Assembly (NCBI RefSeq): GCF_003841505.1 | Contig: NZ_REGA01000005.1 | Span: 1 to 64,000 of the forward strand | Direction: 5' to 3' | From: Natrarchaeobius chitinivorans | Lineage (GTDB): Archaea; Halobacteriota; Halobacteria; Halobacteriales; Natrialbaceae | DNA length: 64,000 nucleotides | Shown: in pieces, positions 1 to 11,211 of the stretch | Numbering within the stretch: position 1 is the stretch's first letter | How the letters are laid out: every line of letters begins with the position of its first letter | Notes under the pieces: generated by a model | Database searches by the model: none | Told to the model about the DNA's origin: nothing | The model's input: only the letters and a program-made list of their open reading frames with translations | Made by a program: the position numbers and the translations under genes

Positions 1-211
1 CGTAGATGTTCTTGTAGTAGCAGTGCAAAAAGGCACGCATCATCTCGGGTGGTTCATGATCTCGTGTTCGCCCCGTCTCCGCCGGGGCGAACACGTCGAA
101 CTCTTCGAGAAACTCGAAGGAGAGATGCTCAAACAGCGCTAGCGTCTCGGTTTCCACGACATTGAAGAACGTCTCTACCGTAGGATTCTCTTGCAGGGTC
201 GCTGGGCTCAT
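1..211 (-). CDS. IS transposase, N-terminal part (cut by window edge)
   Basis: The reading frame opens with ATG at 211 and runs off the left edge, giving 70 residues. The product begins MSPATLQENPTVETFF and is rich in Phe/Glu, ending in a Cys-Tyr-Tyr motif. From memory this resembles the N-terminus of DDE-type transposases found in many copies in haloarchaeal genomes, but I cannot name the IS family with certainty. The catalytic Asp/Glu residues lie outside the window, so whether the copy is intact cannot be judged. The terminal inverted repeat should lie between 212 and about 260, but only one end is visible. Confidence 0.6.
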   Translation of the reverse strand, partial: MSPATLQENPTVETFFNVVETETLALFEHLSFEFLEEFDVFAPAETGRTRDHEPPEMMRAFLHCYYKNIY

Positions 212-273
212 ACCACCTCAGCGTTCACCCTGCTCTCTGGTATGAGAACTGTTCTATGACACCCTCGAGTCTA

Positions 274-829: not shown

Positions 830-911
830 ATACGGTTTACTGTACCTGTGTACCGGCGTACCCGCCGCCCGGGTCGCGGGTGCGCCGGCAATGACGTACA
901 GAAAACCGTAT
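830..911. repeat. 82-bp palindromic repeat, copy 1
   Basis: Both ends carry ATACGG/CCGTAT and the inside holds a GC-rich inverted repeat (ACCGGCG.../...GCGCCGG). The last base is also the last base of the TGA stop codon of the gene at 911-1630, so on the coding strand the message reads TGATACGG. In RNA it would fold into one long hairpin directly after the stop. Related copies are at 6205, 21411, 21578, 47607 and 49173. The rest of the spacer 601-829 holds only the DUF5789 promoter. Confidence 0.85.
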
Positions 912-1630
912 CACGCCTTCAGAACCGTCTGTACGTACCGACGGAGGGTGTCGCCGTCGCCGTCCCGCAGTTCGACCGTAAACTGCTTCTGCCCGACGAC
1001 TTCCTCGGCGTCGGCCCGGTCGAACTCGAGTGTAAACGGCGGTGAGCCGTCGGCGCGATCGAGTTCCCGGTTACCCGATAACACGACGACGTGGTCGACC
1101 CTGTCGTCGGTCTCGACGAGACAGGTGACGAGTTGATCGTCGGTCTCACAGTCGACGTCGGCGCTGACGTCCGGGCTTCCGTCACCGCCGACGAACCCGG
1201 TGACGTCGAGCATCATGGGGCCGATCGGTACCGCTCCGAGGACGATGACGACGAGCAAAAACACGGAGAGATTCACCTTCGAGGCGTGTCTGGAGAACGC
1301 TCGTGCGACCGGATGGTTCGCTGTCCGTCTGAGTCTGATTGCGAGCGGGACGACGACCATGTGCGTAAGCGGGCCCCACAGGATGAGGACGAACCCGTAG
1401 GCCATCACGTACGTCAGCCACCCCCACTCCGACTGGAACGAGTAGAGGAGGGAAGTCGCCACCCACAGGAAAAAGCCGAAGAAGACGAGCGTCCCGCTTT
1501 TCAACCACCGCCAGACTGGCGTGTTCGTGTAGTAGACGCTGAGTAGGTCTCGCCACAGGCGTCGTGGGATCCCTCCGAGTCGTACGAGAACCGATCTGAT
1601 TGTGTTCGACGTATCGTCGTTCGAATCCAT
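911..1630 (-). CDS. Membrane protein with C-terminal exported domain, last gene of heme-copper operon
   Basis: I do not recognise this 239-residue protein. A basic N-terminal stretch is followed by three hydrophobic segments (about residues 44-62, 72-95 and 118-140). A polar acidic domain of about 95 residues follows, with two cysteines, probably beta-rich and on the outer face. It follows subunit I by 26 bp on the same strand, so it is probably cotranscribed and may be an accessory subunit or assembly factor. An in-frame upstream ATG at 1675 would overlap the preceding gene, so the ATG at 1630 is preferred. The palindromic repeat at 830-911 follows its stop directly and may serve as terminator. 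Confidence 0.6.
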   Translation of the reverse strand: MDSNDDTSNTIRSVLVRLGGIPRRLWRDLLSVYYTNTPVWRWLKSGTLVFFGFFLWVATSLLYSFQSEWGWLTYVMAYGFVLILWGPLTHMVVVPLAIRLRRTANHPVARAFSRHASKVNLSVFLLVVIVLGAVPIGPMMLDVTGFVGGDGSPDVSADVDCETDDQLVTCLVETDDRVDHVVVLSGNRELDRADGSPPFTLEFDRADAEEVVGQKQFTVELRDGDGDTLRRYVQTVLKA

Positions 1631-1656: not shown

Positions 1657-3405
1657 TTAGAGGCCGATCGACCACAGCTGCGAGAGCAGATACCAGTTGA
1701 GCGCCCAGGTGACGACGAAGACCCCCATGAACACGAGGGTCAGGACGAACGTTCCCCGCATCTCGTAGGCGTGGACAGGGTCGCTGGCTCCGCCCTCCGG
1801 CTTCAGGGTTCCGTCGGGGAGCAACCGTTCGGCAGCCTCGCCGTCGCCGTTTCGTTTTCCGAACAGCAACGTCGCGAGCGCGATGACGAGAAACAGCGCA
1901 CCGGAGACGACCGCGAGCATGGCGAACACCCCAAATACGTTGAACAGCGGGGCAGCCGCCACGAGGTTGAACTCGGTACCGGGGATGTTCTCGACGACCT
2001 CGGCGACCCGGCGCGGAACGCCGTAGAGCAAGCCGACGTACATCATCATCAGCGCCGTGATTCCCATCGTCGACGCGAAGAGGTAGGGCCAGAGGCTAGC
2101 GAGGCGCGGTAACGCGAGTTTCCGGTCGAACGACGTCTGGAGCAAGAACAGGATCAACCCCATGAACGCGAACGTCGTGCCGAGGACGACGGTGCCGTGG
2201 AAGTGGCCGACGGTCGCGAACGTGTTCTGCCAGGTCATGTTCAGCTGGAGCTGTCCCATGACGACGCCGGTGATGCCGCCGATGAACCCGAACAGGATCA
2301 CCGACAGCACGACCGACGAGAACACGGGATTGTGCCACGGCGCGGAGGTGAGCCAGCCGAACAGGCCGCCGCCTTTCCCTCGCTTTCGACGGCCGGCCTC
2401 GAGTCCGGCGGGGATCGCGAACGCGTGGATCATGCTCGCGAAGGCAGCGCCGTAGAACGCGTAGGAGGTGTTGAACAGCCGCCAGCCGAGTTCGACGACC
2501 GGCTCGGAGAGCAGGTGGTGGGCGGCACCGAGGTTGATGAAGAACAGATAGAGGATAAACGCGGTACGCGAGACCTTCTCCGAGACGACCTCGGCTCCGC
2601 CGACGACGTGGGTCAGGAAGTACCAGACGGTGATCATCGCGACGAGGTTTATCTGCTGGGTGCCGTGGCCGACGATCCAGTAGACGTGGCGGTACACCGA
2701 GGCGTCGATCGACGAGATGATCTCGACCCGCCAGAGCAGCGCGTAGGTGAAGACGGCCAGTCCGCCGAGGATCGCCTGGACGGCGATGATCGACGTGACG
2801 AAGGCGCCGAACGCGACGAGTGGGAGCGTTTTCCCCGGATTCTCTCGTTTCTCCTGCCACATCGAGAGGAAAAACGGGAGGGCGGCGATCGTCGCCCCGA
2901 GGAGGAACACGACCGCGCCCACGTAGAACAGCGGCGCGGACGGAAGCGGGGCGTACGCGGTGAGCAACGGCGCCTGATCCGGTGGCGTGGTGGTCCAGAT
3001 CGCGTAGTTGACCAACACTGCACCGGCGACCATGGTTCCCCAACCGGCTTTCGCGACGGTCGTGATCGGGAGTTTACGCCCGAGGACCAGCGGCCCGCCG
3101 ACGTAGAGGATCGAGATCTCCATGAACACCATCCAGAAGATCAGCAGGTTCCAGGCGTGCATGCTGAGGTGGATGTAGAAGTCGGCCGGCTCGAGCAGCC
3201 CGACGAGTTCCCACCTGGTCAGCGGGACCGTGATCGCGAACAGTCCGCCCACGAGCAACGCGACGACCGCCGTGAGCCCGAATAGTTTCGCGTAATTTTC
3301 CGTCGAACTGTGGATCTCGAGTCCGGTCACCGAACACGTCCGCCAGCCGTCGTCGTCGTACTCGTGATCGAACAGCCCGAGGACGTCCAGCCTCGAGGCG
3401 TTCAT
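1657..3405 (-). CDS. Heme-copper oxidoreductase subunit I, B-type-like, lacking the active-site tyrosine
   Basis: A polytopic protein of 582 residues and the catalytic subunit of a terminal heme-copper enzyme. Ligand histidines are all visible: H83 (SMHAWN, low-spin heme), H247 (VGHGTQQ, CuB), H296-H297 (GAAHHLL, CuB), and H401 and H403 (VGHFHG, high-spin and low-spin heme). Flanking sequence aligns with Thermus ba3 oxidase, a B-type enzyme. In oxygen reductases the residue four after the first CuB histidine is a tyrosine cross-linked to it; here that position is Q251. Loss of this Tyr with retention of the histidines is known for nitric oxide reductase-like families (cNOR/qNOR and the eNOR, sNOR, gNOR and nNOR groups). 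The ATG at 3405 overlaps the TGA of the CuA subunit, implying translational coupling. Likely substrate is NO or O2; the sequence favours NO but does not prove it. Confidence 0.85.
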   Translation of the reverse strand: MNASRLDVLGLFDHEYDDDGWRTCSVTGLEIHSSTENYAKLFGLTAVVALLVGGLFAITVPLTRWELVGLLEPADFYIHLSMHAWNLLIFWMVFMEISILYVGGPLVLGRKLPITTVAKAGWGTMVAGAVLVNYAIWTTTPPDQAPLLTAYAPLPSAPLFYVGAVVFLLGATIAALPFFLSMWQEKRENPGKTLPLVAFGAFVTSIIAVQAILGGLAVFTYALLWRVEIISSIDASVYRHVYWIVGHGTQQINLVAMITVWYFLTHVVGGAEVVSEKVSRTAFILYLFFINLGAAHHLLSEPVVELGWRLFNTSYAFYGAAFASMIHAFAIPAGLEAGRRKRGKGGGLFGWLTSAPWHNPVFSSVVLSVILFGFIGGITGVVMGQLQLNMTWQNTFATVGHFHGTVVLGTTFAFMGLILFLLQTSFDRKLALPRLASLWPYLFASTMGITALMMMYVGLLYGVPRRVAEVVENIPGTEFNLVAAAPLFNVFGVFAMLAVVSGALFLVIALATLLFGKRNGDGEAAERLLPDGTLKPEGGASDPVHAYEMRGTFVLTLVFMGVFVVTWALNWYLLSQLWSIGL

Positions 3406-3947
3406 TCGTCGTCCACCACCGTGAACGTGCCGTGCATACTTCGGTGACCGTCGCCACAAAACTCCGAACAGATGACGTGGTACTCGCCGGGTTCGTCGAA
3501 CGTCATCGGGACGATCCACTCGTATCCCGGGAGGATGTCGAAGTTCATCTGCGCCGAGAGGTTGTGCTCGGGTCTGATGTTCGTCGCGTGCTGGACGTCG
3601 TAGGAGCTAAAGTGAAACTGGTACTGGGTTCCGGTCTCGAGAACCGCCGGTAACCCGTCCCACTGGAACCGCTGGCCCGCGATGTAGACGTGTTCGTCGG
3701 CCGGAACGTAGCCGCCGTCGGTCTCCTCGGCCGCTTCCTTGTACTGATCTACTTTTTCGCGGAACTGCTCGGGAGAGATTTCGTAGGTATCGCCCGTCGG
3801 GTTCTGGTCGCCGGCCCGAACCCAGCCGCTCATCCAGCTGAACAGGAACAGCGACCAGACCCCAGCAATGCCGAGCCAGATCGTTTCGCGCCGGTTCACG
3901 GACTCGCTCCACCAGTCCCCTTCCGGGGGATCGATCGGAGACGTCAC
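3402..3947 (-). CDS. Heme-copper oxidoreductase subunit II with CuA site
   Basis: 181 residues, starting with GTG at 3947. One transmembrane anchor (about residues 22-40) is followed by a cupredoxin domain outside the membrane. The CuA ligands are present: H120 (YDVQHATN), then C160, C164, H168 and M171 in CSEFCGDGHRSM. It accepts electrons from a soluble donor such as halocyanin or cytochrome c and passes them to subunit I. The presence of CuA separates this complex from cNOR, which uses a cytochrome c subunit, and from quinol oxidases. It lies 4 bp after the small subunit and overlaps subunit I by 4 bp, so the three are an operon. Confidence 0.9.
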   Translation of the reverse strand: MTSPIDPPEGDWWSESVNRRETIWLGIAGVWSLFLFSWMSGWVRAGDQNPTGDTYEISPEQFREKVDQYKEAAEETDGGYVPADEHVYIAGQRFQWDGLPAVLETGTQYQFHFSSYDVQHATNIRPEHNLSAQMNFDILPGYEWIVPMTFDEPGEYHVICSEFCGDGHRSMHGTFTVVDDE

Positions 3948-3951
3948 GGAA

Positions 3952-4098
3952 TCACCCCGAGGGAACCGCGGCGATGTCGATCATCGCCCACCCGAGATAG
4001 ACGACGAAAAAGAAAATCGTCGCCAGGGCGGCCAGAAGCCATATTTTGTTGTACAGCCGCTGCATGAGCGGTATTTCGTCGGTCGGTTGGTGTGCCAT
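3952..4098 (-). CDS. Small single-span subunit of heme-copper enzyme (CbaD-like)
   Basis: 48 residues starting at the ATG at 4098. A short polar N-terminus is followed by one hydrophobic helix of about 25 residues (LAALATIFFFVVYLGWAM). Position and size match the small first subunit (CbaD) of haloarchaeal ba3-type operons such as that of Natronomonas, where the order is also small subunit, CuA subunit, subunit I. It is the first gene of the operon, and its stop is 4 bp before the GTG of subunit II. Assignment rests on context and topology rather than on sequence identity. Confidence 0.7.
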   Translation of the reverse strand: MAHQPTDEIPLMQRLYNKIWLLAALATIFFFVVYLGWAMIDIAAVPSG

Positions 4099-4157: not shown

Positions 4158-4601
4158 TCACGTGAGACGGGGAATCGACACCGCGACCAGTATTCGCCAC
4201 GAGAGAACGAACCCGAGTCCGACGACGAGATTGACGAGCACGAACTCGACGGGCGCACCGCCGTGAAAGAACGGTGTCGCCCGGATTCCGGCTCCGAGCA
4301 CCGATACGACGATCCAGGCCAGCGAAGCGACTCCAAGCGTTCGTCGGACCGACCGAAGCGTCCTCGAGGCGTACGCGCCGACGATCGGCGCGACGATCAG
4401 CCACGCGAGGAGGAACGGAAGCGCGGTTTGGATCGCGTACACGGGATGTGACGTCGGCGAGATCTGGTGCATCAACAGCCCGAGAACGACGAACGCTGCA
4501 AGGATCACGACGTCACCTACAGCGACGAACACGGCGGATACCGGCGGACGAAACGAATCACGAGACGGCGACGATCCCATCGTCAGTCGACGTCGGAGCA
4601 T
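4158..4601 (-). CDS. DUF3054 membrane protein
   Basis: 147 residues with four predicted membrane helices (about 22-42, 52-74, 85-103 and 118-140). The pattern, including the HP-Y-I-Q-T-ALPFLLAW segment and the GAYASRT loop, fits the DUF3054 family, common in actinobacteria and haloarchaea. Function is unknown. An internal ATG at 4580 is a possible alternative start. It lies just upstream of the respiratory operon on the same strand, but the TATA box between them suggests separate transcription. Confidence 0.75.
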   Translation of the reverse strand: MLRRRLTMGSSPSRDSFRPPVSAVFVAVGDVVILAAFVVLGLLMHQISPTSHPVYAIQTALPFLLAWLIVAPIVGAYASRTLRSVRRTLGVASLAWIVVSVLGAGIRATPFFHGGAPVEFVLVNLVVGLGFVLSWRILVAVSIPRLT

Positions 4602-4795: not shown

Positions 4796-6205
4796 ATGAA
4801 CCGGCCATCGTTTACGTCGCTTCTCCTCTGGGTAACAGTCGGTACTTACTTGCTCGTCTCTCTGGGCGCGGCCGGTGCGGGAACGTCGCTTCCGGCGTCC
4901 GTGACGATCGCTCACCACGCGACCGCAGGCGTCGTCGGCGTCCTCCTCCTCGCGGTGGTCGCCGTCGCCTGGATACGACGCGTGCCGATGCCGGTTCGGA
5001 CCGGCGTGACGCTCGCACTAGCGCTGTATCCCGTCCAGGCGGCTCTGGGCTATCTGCACGCGGGTACCGCCGGCGACTCGTTCGCGGTCGGTCACCTCCT
5101 CGGCGGGATCGCGATCTTCGTCGCGCTCTTGCTCACGCTCACGTGGCACCTCGACAGCGTCGATTTTCCGTCCGCGAACCCCACCGAACCGGTCACACCA
5201 TCTCGCCTCGAGACGCCGGCGGAGTCGACGGACGCAACGACGGGACCGGGCGAACGGGAGAACCCGGCGACCGAGGGAGTCGTCGCCTCGAGCGACGAAT
5301 CGGCGACCGATGCTCCCGACGGCCGTCTCCACGCAGTAGGACGCACTGTGCTCGCGTACGCCGAGTTGATGAAACTCCGCCTCGCCTGGTTGCTGTGTTT
5401 GCTCGCGCTCGCGGGGATGGGACTCGCGACTGCGACCGGAGCCCCCCTCGAGGGCGTGACGGTCGTGACGACGCTCACCGCTGGCATCCTCGCGATCGGC
5501 GCGAGCGGAACGTTCAATCACGTGTACGAACGCGACCGCGACCGGAAGATGTCCCGAACCGCGGATCGCCCCGTCGTCACCGACCGGGTTTCACCCCGTC
5601 GCGCGTTCGTCTTCGGGATCGCCCTCGCCGTCGTCTCGCTCGGGCTGATGGTCGCACTCGTCAACGCGCTCTCCGCGTTGCTGACGGCGGCTGCGATCGT
5701 CTACTACAGCTTCGTCTACACCGTCGTTCTCAAACCGAACACGACCTGGAACATCGCGATCGGCGGCGGGTCGGGGGCGTTGCCCGCACTCATCGGATGG
5801 GCGGCCGTAACCGGTGGGATCGGGCTCCCCGCGATCGTGCTCGCGGGGATCGTCGTCCTCTGGACGCCCGCTCACTTCTACAACCTCGCCATCGCCCACG
5901 CCGAGGATTACGCCGCCGGCGGCTACCCGATGTTGCCGGTCGTTCGGAGCGTCGCTCTGACGCGAAGACGCATCCTCTACTCGATGGGTGCCACGCTCCT
6001 CGCAACCGTCCTCCTGATCGGGATCACCGACCTCGGACCGATCGCCGCGGGCGTCTCGGCTCTCTTCGGCGGGGCGTTCGTCTGGACCGTCGCCCGCCAG
6101 TACCGAGAAACCAGCACGCGTGCCGCCTACCGGTCGTTTCACGCCTCGAACGCGTACCTCGGTGCGCTCCTCGCGGTCGTTCTCCTCGAGTTTCTCGTTC
6201 TGTGA
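4796..6205 (+). CDS. ctaB: Heme O synthase (protoheme IX farnesyltransferase) with CtaA-like N-terminal domain
   Basis: 469 residues. The C-terminal 290 residues are a UbiA-type prenyltransferase that adds farnesyl to heme B. The first Asp-rich motif is at NHVYERDRDRKM and is followed by RTADRP; the second region is AHFYNLAIAHAEDY. The first Asp of the usual DxxxD is Glu here. The N-terminal 120 residues hold four further helices with a His-His pair in helix 2 (IAHHATAG) and a His in helix 4 (VGHLLGG). This looks like half of a heme A synthase (CtaA). A polar linker of about 60 residues joins the two. The gene lies divergent to the heme-copper operon and presumably supplies its heme. The stop codon shares a base with a palindromic repeat. 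Confidence 0.92.
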   Translation: MNRPSFTSLLLWVTVGTYLLVSLGAAGAGTSLPASVTIAHHATAGVVGVLLLAVVAVAWIRRVPMPVRTGVTLALALYPVQAALGYLHAGTAGDSFAVGHLLGGIAIFVALLLTLTWHLDSVDFPSANPTEPVTPSRLETPAESTDATTGPGERENPATEGVVASSDESATDAPDGRLHAVGRTVLAYAELMKLRLAWLLCLLALAGMGLATATGAPLEGVTVVTTLTAGILAIGASGTFNHVYERDRDRKMSRTADRPVVTDRVSPRRAFVFGIALAVVSLGLMVALVNALSALLTAAAIVYYSFVYTVVLKPNTTWNIAIGGGSGALPALIGWAAVTGGIGLPAIVLAGIVVLWTPAHFYNLAIAHAEDYAAGGYPMLPVVRSVALTRRRILYSMGATLLATVLLIGITDLGPIAAGVSALFGGAFVWTVARQYRETSTRAAYRSFHASNAYLGALLAVVLLEFLVL

Positions 6206-8763: not shown

Positions 8764-11211
8764 ATGAGCGAATGCTCGCTGTGCGAGTTGCCGACACCGG
8801 ATCCACCGGTGACGGGTTCTGGCGTCGACGGCGAGTTCTGCTGTCGCGGCTGTCTCGAGGTCGCGGACGTCCTCGAGGCGGCCGACCTCGAGGAAGCGTC
8901 AGTCCGCGAGCGCGCTCGCGAGAACGCGGGCTACGAGGCGGATACCAACGCGGGCGGTCTCACCGATACCGGCGTCGACCGGTCGGTACCCGACGGGTTT
9001 CGGGAGGTGTTCGTGTCCGTCGCCGGGATGCACTGTACGACCTGCGAGGCGTTCGTCTCGCTCTACGGCGAGCGCCACGAGGGGATCGATCGGGTCGACG
9101 TTAACTACGCGACCGATCTCGCCAGGGTCGTCTACGATCCCGAGGCGATCGACGAGGCGGACGTTCCCGAGGCGTTGACCGGCCACGGCTACCGCGCGAG
9201 CCTCGAGGCGGATCCGGACACCGACCGCGCCGACGTGGACGCGGTACAGCGGCTGCTGGTCGGCGGATTCTGTGCGATGTTGGTCATGCCGTGGTACCTG
9301 TTTTACCTGTATCCGAGCTACGTCGGCATCGATACGGGCATCCTCAGCGTCGACTCGAGCGCGGCGGGCTACTACGTTCCGATGGGGATGATGGGGCTTC
9401 TGACGACCATCGTGATCGGCTACACCGGTCGCCCCGTCCTGCGAAGCGCGTACGCCAGTCTCCGGACGCGACGGCCGAACATGGACCTGCTGATCGCGGT
9501 GGCGGCGCTCTCGGCGTACGCCTACAGCACGGTGGCGCTCCTCTTGCGGGAGACACACCTCTACTACGACGTCTCCATCGCGGTGATCCTCGTCGTCACT
9601 CTCGGTGGGTATTACGAGGGAAGGATCAAGCGACGGTCCACGTCGAGGCTGGCGGCGATCACGACGACCAGGGTCCGGGAGGCAACCAGACGAACGGCGA
9701 CGGGGACGGAGACGGTCCCGACCGGGGAACTCCGCGGCGGCGACGAGGTACTGATCCAGGCGGGCGACCGAATCCCGATCGACGGGACGGTCCGCGAGGG
9801 CACCGCCCCGGTCGACGAGTCGCTGCTGACGGGCGAATCGCTCCCGGTGACGAAACGGCCGGGCGACCCGGTCGCCGGCGGGTCCGTCGCACACGAACCG
9901 CTGGTCGTCGAGGTGTCGGCCGGCGCGACGAGCACGCTCGACCGCATCGCCGAGTTGCTGTGGTCGATCCAGACCACCAGGCCGGGCGTCCAGCGGTTCG
10001 TCGACCGGCTTTCGACGGTGTTCGTTCCCTTCGTGTTCACGATCGCAGCCGCCGCCACCGTCGTCCGACTCGGGAGCGGTGAACCCGTCTCGAGCGCGTT
10101 GCTCACCGGGCTGACGGTGCTCGTCGTCTCCTGTCCCTGCGCGATGGGGCTTGCAACCCCGCTGGCCATCGTCGGCGGGCTTCGAGACGCCCTCGAGCGC
10201 GGGATCGTCGTGACGAACCACACTGTCTTCGAGACCGCTCCCGACGCCGATACGGTGGTCTTCGACAAGACGGGGACGCTGACCGCCGGCGAGATGGCCG
10301 TCCAGGAGGTTCTCGGCGACCGCGACGCGCTCGCGATCGCAAGCGTGATCGAGCGACGCGATCGCCATCCGGTCGCGGACGCGATCGTCGACGCGGTCGA
10401 CGACGATCGCTTCGCCTCCGCGTCGGTCGAACGCTTCGAGCGACACCCCGGCAGGGGAATCGAGGGAATCGTCGACGGGTCGCGGGTCGTTGCCGGTTCG
10501 GTCGCCCTGCTCGAGGAGGAAATCGGTGCGATTCCCGACCGCCTCTCGACGACCGCGGACGACGCACGCGGGGACGGACTCCTGCCGGTCGCGATCGGCG
10601 TCGAGCCGCTGGTACGAAGCGACGGTGGTGACGTCGAGTCGATAGCTTCTCCGTCGGGCCCAGAACCTTCCTCGTTCGCGCTCGCGCTCGTCGGCGACCG
10701 CGAGCGTGACGCCTGGCACGACGCGGTCGCCGCGGTCGGCGACCGCGAGGTGATCGTCCTCACCGGTGACGACGAGTCCGCCGCCGAACGGTTCCGGACG
10801 CACCCCTCTGTCGATCGCGTCTTCGCCGGCATCCCGCCGGACGGCAAAGTCGCAACGATCCGGCGGCTGTCGGCGGATCGAACCGTCGCGATGGTCGGTG
10901 ACGGAACCAACGACGCACCCGCACTCGCGGCCGCCGACCTGGGGATCGCGATGGGGAGCGGAACCGACAGCGCGGCCGACGCCGCGGACATCGTCGTCCT
11001 CGAGGACGATCTGCACGCGGTCGGAACCACGTTCGACCTCGCCGCCGGCACCCGACGCCGCCTCCGCGAGAACGTCGGCTGGGCGCTTTTGTACAACGCG
11101 ATCGCGATTCCGCTCGCGGCCGCCGGTGCGATCAACCCGCTGTTCGCGGCCCTCGCCATGGCGACGAGTAGCATTCTGGTCGTCACTAACTCGAGGCGAT
11201 CGGTGCTGTGA
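8764..11211 (+). CDS. Copper-translocating P1B-type ATPase, CcoI/FixI-like
   Basis: 815 residues. Residues 1-30 form a cysteine-rich metal-binding domain (CSLCELP, then CCRGC) of the type seen in CcoI/FixI ATPases. An HMA domain follows with C91 and C94 (GMHCTTC). Core motifs: TGES, the CPC membrane motif (about residue 455, VVSCPCAMGL), DKTGT phosphorylation site (about 500), the HP motif (RRDRHPVAD) and GDGTNDAP (about 710). YN in helix 7 and MATSS in helix 8 match Cu+ pumps. CcoI-type pumps deliver copper for heme-copper enzymes rather than detoxify. With the heme-copper operon and ctaB 2.5-7 kb away, a role in loading CuB or CuA is the best inference; simple Cu efflux is the alternative. 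Confidence 0.88.
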   Translation: MSECSLCELPTPDPPVTGSGVDGEFCCRGCLEVADVLEAADLEEASVRERARENAGYEADTNAGGLTDTGVDRSVPDGFREVFVSVAGMHCTTCEAFVSLYGERHEGIDRVDVNYATDLARVVYDPEAIDEADVPEALTGHGYRASLEADPDTDRADVDAVQRLLVGGFCAMLVMPWYLFYLYPSYVGIDTGILSVDSSAAGYYVPMGMMGLLTTIVIGYTGRPVLRSAYASLRTRRPNMDLLIAVAALSAYAYSTVALLLRETHLYYDVSIAVILVVTLGGYYEGRIKRRSTSRLAAITTTRVREATRRTATGTETVPTGELRGGDEVLIQAGDRIPIDGTVREGTAPVDESLLTGESLPVTKRPGDPVAGGSVAHEPLVVEVSAGATSTLDRIAELLWSIQTTRPGVQRFVDRLSTVFVPFVFTIAAAATVVRLGSGEPVSSALLTGLTVLVVSCPCAMGLATPLAIVGGLRDALERGIVVTNHTVFETAPDADTVVFDKTGTLTAGEMAVQEVLGDRDALAIASVIERRDRHPVADAIVDAVDDDRFASASVERFERHPGRGIEGIVDGSRVVAGSVALLEEEIGAIPDRLSTTADDARGDGLLPVAIGVEPLVRSDGGDVESIASPSGPEPSSFALALVGDRERDAWHDAVAAVGDREVIVLTGDDESAAERFRTHPSVDRVFAGIPPDGKVATIRRLSADRTVAMVGDGTNDAPALAAADLGIAMGSGTDSAADAADIVVLEDDLHAVGTTFDLAAGTRRRLRENVGWALLYNAIAIPLAAAGAINPLFAALAMATSSILVVTNSRRSVL

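What the first reader, a model, noticed from the sequence alone, without database searches (positions are those of the whole stretch)
1657..3405. Heme-copper subunit I with Gln in place of the catalytic cross-linked Tyr
All six ligand histidines are present (H83, H247, H296, H297, H401, H403), but H247+4 is Q251. B-type oxygen reductases need Tyr here to supply an electron and proton for O-O cleavage. A CuA subunit II is next to it, so the complex differs from cNOR (cytochrome c subunit) and qNOR. This combination recalls the less-studied NOR families (eNOR, sNOR, gNOR, nNOR), and I cannot say which, if any. The enzyme would be annotated as cytochrome c oxidase by default but may reduce NO to N2O.
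Basis: partly seen in the sequence, partly recalled or inferred. Interest (0 to 1): 0.8.

Follow-up and report, generated by a model that had tools for sequence, protein, structure and literature searches.

The report
Haloarchaeal eNOR-type nitric oxide reductase
This archaeal gene, which standard annotation would call a cytochrome c oxidase, belongs to a known but poorly studied family of enzymes (eNOR) that turn nitric oxide into the greenhouse gas nitrous oxide, and in this genome it and a second copy are the only heme-copper enzymes that could do that step.

Summary
The gene at 1657-3405 (minus strand, 582 aa) is a heme-copper subunit I with all six ligand histidines and Gln251 where B-type oxygen reductases have Tyr. 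A CuA subunit II overlaps its 5' end. In a tree, all Gln sequences form one clade (100/100), separate from the Tyr-bearing B-type clade (96/94) and from cNOR/qNOR; the window protein lies inside it, near Rhodothermus sequences (62-63% identity). Context agrees: among 125 genomes of the family, 39/39 with eNOR also have nirK (29/86 without), and 23/43 eNOR copies lie within about 16 kb of nirK, against 1/76 Tyr-type B oxidases. The genome has two nirK, a nosZ-like gene and two eNORs, but no qNOR and no narG. NO reduction itself was not tested here. The new element is small: a 239-aa membrane/Ig-fold gene follows subunit I throughout the haloarchaeal and Rhodothermota branch and was found in no eNOR-negative genome searched; it may be an undescribed subunit or assembly factor. 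Verdict: new member of a known kind.

The parts
1657..3405 (-). eNOR subunit I (582 aa): six His ligands H83, H247, H296, H297, H401, H403; Q251 in place of the cross-linked Tyr; eNOR-only E96 and H327
3402..3947 (-). eNOR subunit II with one N-terminal transmembrane helix and a CuA site (H120, C160, E162, C164, H168, M171); overlaps the start of subunit I
3952..4098 (-). 48-aa single-helix protein directly before subunit II, conserved in archaeal and many bacterial eNOR loci; probable small subunit, like subunit IIa of ba3
911..1630 (-). 239-aa membrane protein with a C-terminal Ig-like beta domain and two invariant Cys, downstream of subunit I in haloarchaeal and Rhodothermota eNOR loci; no Pfam or NCBIfam family; candidate extra subunit or assembly factor
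4796..6205 (+). heme O synthase (CtaB) with an N-terminal membrane extension; a ctaB homologue is near eNOR in many archaeal and proteobacterial loci, so probably supplies its heme
8764..11211 (+). Cu-type P1B ATPase; a homologue lies near eNOR in most haloarchaeal loci, so probably copper supply for CuB/CuA
4158..4601 (-). DUF3054 membrane protein directly upstream; seen near only two other eNOR loci in the part of the output shown, so probably not part of the system

Best explanation
A CuA-containing nitric oxide reductase of the eNOR family. Electrons from a blue copper protein (probably halocyanin) enter at CuA in subunit II, pass to the low-spin heme (H83/H403) and on to the high-spin heme (H401) and CuB (H247, H296, H297), where two NO and two protons become N2O and water. 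The Tyr that B-type oxidases use to break the O-O bond is not needed for this two-electron reaction and is replaced by Gln. In this haloarchaeon the two eNOR copies serve as the NO-consuming step between NirK and NosZ. Shown here: sequence, ligands, Q251, CuA motif, clade membership, gene context, absence of qNOR. Inferred: NO reductase activity, electron donor, heme type and any proton pumping.
For: Gln on the Tyr column with all ligands kept. The clade of Gln sequences has support 100/100; the Tyr B-type clade, including this genome's own two B-type oxidases, is separate (96/94). Among 125 genomes, 39/39 eNOR+ also have nirK versus 29/86 eNOR- (Fisher p = 4e-14; stratified by genus z = 5.5, p = 3e-8). 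23/43 eNOR copies lie within 25 kb of nirK (largest distance 16 kb) versus 1/76 Tyr-type B oxidases in nirK+ genomes. Own genome: nirK 3.6 kb from the second eNOR copy with a plastocyanin-like gene beside it, a second nirK, a nosZ-like gene, no qNOR and no narG. Thermus plasmid homologues sit next to Rrf2 and DUF542 genes, and one plasmid also has a nitrite reductase gene about 4 kb away. Literature: Gln defines eNOR and it is found across Halobacteria (PMC8756737); eNOR is listed among biochemically characterised NORs (PMC11388526); an eNOR-NirK operon was noted in Ardenticatena (PMC4653789).
Against: No activity data from any haloarchaeal eNOR were found. 12 of the 39 eNOR+ genomes lack qNOR but 27 have it, so eNOR is not always the sole NOR. 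No nirK is visible on the window's contig, although the contig starts inside an insertion sequence only about 0.65 kb beyond the last operon gene. The nosZ hit is below its family cut-off, as in the Haloferax control. Natronoglomus mannanivorans, which carries an eNOR with a nirK about 4 kb away (L051), did not grow anaerobically on nitrite or N2O (PMC10963439), so detoxification rather than respiration is possible.
Confidence: 0.9

Rival explanations
1. An oxygen reductase that lost the Tyr but still reduces O2, perhaps slowly or with another radical site.
For: The fold is closest to Thermus ba3 oxidase (Foldseek TM 0.73-0.74, 26% identity), and the family is derived from, or sister to, B-type oxidases. 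eNOR is reported to act under microoxic conditions (PMC11388526).
Against: The Gln is invariant in all relatives examined across archaea and bacteria, with no reversion to Tyr. No Tyr at the cbb3 position. Strong and specific association with nirK, unlike Tyr-type B oxidases in the same genomes. The genome already has three Tyr-bearing heme-copper oxidases.
Confidence: 0.05
2. An NO-detoxifying enzyme rather than part of energy-conserving denitrification: same chemistry, different role.
For: The genome lacks narG. An eNOR+ nirK+ natronoarchaeon did not grow on nitrite or N2O (PMC10963439). Thermus copies sit with Rrf2 and DUF542 genes, which resemble NO-stress genes.
Against: Linkage to nirK, presence of a nosZ-like gene, and a predicted proton channel in eNOR (PMC8756737 Table A4) fit energy conservation.
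Confidence: 0.3
3. A member of another Tyr-less family (sNOR, gNOR, bNOR/CuANOR, nNOR).
For: sNOR and gNOR are also predicted to carry a cupredoxin subunit II (PMC8756737).
Against: Reported residue is N for sNOR and CuANOR, D for gNOR; here it is Q. The protein lies among Q sequences including Halobacteria and Rhodothermus. Reference sequences of these families were not available for the tree.
Confidence: 0.02

Closest known systems
eNOR, the heme-copper NO reductase family with active-site Gln (Hemp & Gennis 2008; Murali et al. 2024; as cited in PMC8756737 and PMC11388526)
   Same: Gln in place of Tyr, six His ligands, cupredoxin (CuA) subunit II immediately upstream, linkage to nirK, occurrence in Halobacteria, misannotation as cytochrome c oxidase
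   Different: No difference in subunit I that would exclude it. The haloarchaeal and Rhodothermota branch adds a fourth conserved gene (window 911-1630) not found in the other eNOR loci examined.
B-type (ba3) oxygen reductase, e.g. Thermus thermophilus ba3
   Same: Fold, metal ligands, CuA subunit II, small single-helix subunit, conserved Y262 and S324 (K-channel-like positions)
   Different: Gln instead of cross-linked Tyr, E96 and H327 present only in eNOR, separate clade, only 24-27% identity
qNOR/cNOR
   Same: Proposed reaction NO to N2O
   Different: These have Glu at the aligned site and either a fused quinol/cytochrome-like domain or a cytochrome c subunit, and lie in a distant clade

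Membership tests
eNOR | Gln in place of the active-site Tyr | tested here: met
   Q251 on the Tyr column; criterion from PMC8756737
eNOR | All six heme/CuB histidine ligands retained | tested here: met
eNOR | Separate cupredoxin subunit II with CuA, upstream of subunit I | tested here: met
eNOR | Falls within the clade of eNOR sequences, outside oxygen reductases | tested here: met
   100/100 clade of 28 Q rows plus one Leptospiraceae Q row
eNOR | Proton channel in subunit I | tested here: inconclusive
   Y262 and S324 are conserved and H327 replaces the Thr; function not testable
eNOR | Reduces NO to N2O | not testable with these tools
   needs enzyme assay
B-type oxygen reductase | Tyr four residues after the first CuB His | tested here: not met
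   Q251
B-type oxygen reductase | Membership in the Tyr B-type clade | tested here: not met
C-type (cbb3) oxygen reductase | Tyr on helix VII, six residues before the HH pair (position from general knowledge) | tested here: not met
   Ile or Leu in 106 sequences
cNOR/qNOR | Glu at the site; cytochrome c subunit or fused N-terminal domain | tested here: not met
   no PF22085 match in the genome
sNOR/gNOR/bNOR | Asn (sNOR, CuANOR) or Asp (gNOR) at the site | tested here: not met
   Q251; residues from PMC8756737 Table A4; no reference sequences of these families were in the tree
nNOR | Clade membership and active-site residue (residue not given in the papers read) | not tested
   no nNOR reference sequence was available

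The most novel reading that the evidence does not exclude
The haloarchaeal and Rhodothermota eNORs are a structurally distinct subtype with an additional, undescribed subunit: the 239-aa membrane/Ig-fold protein at 911-1630, which is coinherited with subunit I and absent from genomes without it. It could be a stable subunit, for example a docking site for the blue copper donor, or a dedicated assembly factor.
Probability: 0.5. Interest if true: 0.4.

Novelty: new member of a known kind. Interest (0 to 1): 0.3.

Why it matters
A 2021 survey states that qNOR is the only NOR class in haloarchaea (PMC8400030). Yet 39 of 125 genomes of this family carry eNOR, always with nirK, and 12 of those, including this one, have no qNOR; they would be scored as lacking NO reduction. 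Hypersaline N2O budgets and denitrifier counts based on qNOR alone are therefore incomplete. A genome with two eNORs and no qNOR is a clean place to test what eNOR does in an archaeon.

Tried and rejected
2) The primary eNOR paper (Murali 2024) is not held; statements about it come from papers that cite it. That the characterised enzyme is from Rhodothermus marinus is from memory. 3) Burkholderia, Janthinobacterium and Mesorhizobium plasmid sequences were fetched as possible sNOR; they have Tyr and are B-type. 4) A cbb3-like Tyr on helix VII was looked for and not found. 5) Named loci were partly selected by the GHxxQQ pattern, so they were not used as evidence for conservation of the Gln; the 29 family relatives were. 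6) Fold search of the 239-aa protein gave only weak Ig-like matches (SoxYZ, beta-glucuronidase domains; TM about 0.25). 7) DUF3054 upstream was considered as part of the operon and set aside, since it recurs near only two other eNOR loci in the output shown.

Full report
What was checked. The gene at 1657-3405, minus strand, encodes 582 aa with a PF00115 domain (168 bits). Alignments with four other eNOR-type sequences, with six Tyr-type B oxidases and with 46 others including A-type, cNOR and qNOR put H83, H247, H296, H297, H401 and H403 on the ligand columns and Q251 on the column of the cross-linked Tyr. Subunit II (3402-3947) has a full CuA set.

Why it is not chance. The same genome has a second copy (contig C25, 69% identical) with the same Gln. 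All 29 same-family relatives fetched without using the motif have GHxxQQ, as do Thermus, Defluviimonas and Thermomicrobium plasmid homologues. Two further residues, E96 and H327, occur in all Gln sequences checked and in none of the Tyr or Glu sequences. H327 replaces the Thr that the B-type sequences, Thermus ba3 included, have at this column, which I take to be a K-channel position.

Which family. A maximum-likelihood tree of 47 sequences separates the Gln sequences (100/100), the Tyr B-type sequences (96/94) and cNOR/qNOR (100/100). The window protein sits with haloarchaeal sequences; Rhodothermus and Salinivenus sequences nest among them. The tree carries a warning about long branches at the A-type and qNOR joins; these joins are not the ones on which the split between eNOR and B-type rests. 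Published criteria name Gln as the mark of eNOR (PMC8756737), and that paper reports eNOR through Halobacteria. A later paper lists eNOR among biochemically characterised NORs (PMC11388526). From memory, the characterised enzyme is from Rhodothermus marinus; Rhodothermus MAG sequences here are 62-63% identical to the window protein, closer than any B-type oxidase (24-27%).

Placement among oxygen reductases: not seen. A Tyr from another helix: the cbb3-type position six residues before the HH pair is Ile or Leu in 106 sequences. The predicted structure is of good quality (pLDDT 81, pTM 0.86) and matches Thermus ba3 best (TM 0.73-0.74), but side-chain distances could not be measured.

Genome context. 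The genome has five COX1-type proteins: one A-type fusion, two Tyr B-types and two eNORs. It has no qNOR, no narG, two nirK and one nosZ-like gene that scores below the family cut-off (537.7 of 625 bits), as does the Haloferax volcanii control. The second eNOR copy lies 3.6 kb from nirK, with a plastocyanin-like gene, a CcdA-like membrane protein and a copper ATPase. The window copy lies at the very start of its contig, which begins inside an insertion sequence repeated elsewhere in the genome, so its left neighbourhood is unknown. To its right are heme O synthase and a copper ATPase, both of which recur beside eNOR in other genomes.

Co-occurrence test. In 125 genomes of the family, all 39 with eNOR have nirK above the curated cut-off, against 29 of 86 without (p = 4e-14). 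Stratifying by genus leaves z = 5.5, p = 3e-8. The genus labels of genomes not listed in the outputs were inferred from handle order, which is a small weakness. 23 of 43 eNOR copies are within 25 kb of nirK. The control, Tyr-type B oxidases in the same genomes, gives 1 of 76. The eNOR-NirK link was noted before in Ardenticatena (PMC4653789). One paper places the NirK of Rhodothermus marinus among archaeal NirKs (PMC4770552), which fits a joint transfer with eNOR between haloarchaea and Rhodothermota; this is inference.

A fourth gene. The ORF at 911-1630 has no Pfam or NCBIfam family above threshold. A homologue lies downstream of subunit I in all haloarchaeal and Rhodothermota eNOR loci held that are long enough to show it, and in the family search it occurs in 38 of the 39 eNOR genomes and in no other genome. 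The exception (G063) is a locus that stops within subunit I in the stretch held (L042). It was not found in the stretches held around proteobacterial and other bacterial eNOR genes, at most 6 kb on each side. The model (pLDDT 85) has a helical membrane part and a C-terminal beta sandwich with two invariant Cys. I did not find it described; the primary paper was not available, so it may be known.

Mechanism, shown and inferred. Shown: ligands, CuA motif, missing Tyr, clade, context. Inferred: halocyanin donor, NO to N2O chemistry, heme type, proton uptake path through Y262/S324/H327, and role in denitrification versus detoxification. The best estimate is NO reduction at 0.9; respiration and detoxification are left open (the detoxification rival shares this chemistry, so its probability is not exclusive of the main one).

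Noticed in passing
L006 7983-9665, L150 5983-7665, L151 5983-7668 (Thermus thermophilus plasmids): The Thermus eNOR subunit I reads GHFK where the other eNORs aligned read GHFH or AHFH: the low-spin heme His is Lys. Seen in two distinct sequences that differ in neighbouring codons, so probably not a sequencing error; could mean a His-Lys ligated or altered low-spin heme.
   Followed up: partly
window 911-1630: Unnamed membrane/Ig-fold protein strictly coinherited with haloarchaeal and Rhodothermota eNOR; two invariant Cys in the C-terminal domain.
   Followed up: yes
window 1-266: The contig starts inside a repeated element (probably an insertion sequence) that is 100% identical at G000:C20:804-1069 and G000:C38:1-189; a likely assembly break that hides the left neighbourhood of the eNOR operon.
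   Followed up: yes
family search, 11 genomes (e.g. G038, G039, G120): Eleven nirK+ genomes of the family have neither eNOR nor qNOR; their NO sink is not accounted for.
   Followed up: no
G000:C25:18468-19394 and G000:C4:125183-126118: Two different nirK genes in one genome; only the C25 copy is next to an eNOR.
   Followed up: partly
L032, L033 (and G017:C1:3436291): A few eNOR subunit I matches of relatives are reported with one internal TAG; not examined whether real, or an effect of how far the match was extended.
   Followed up: no
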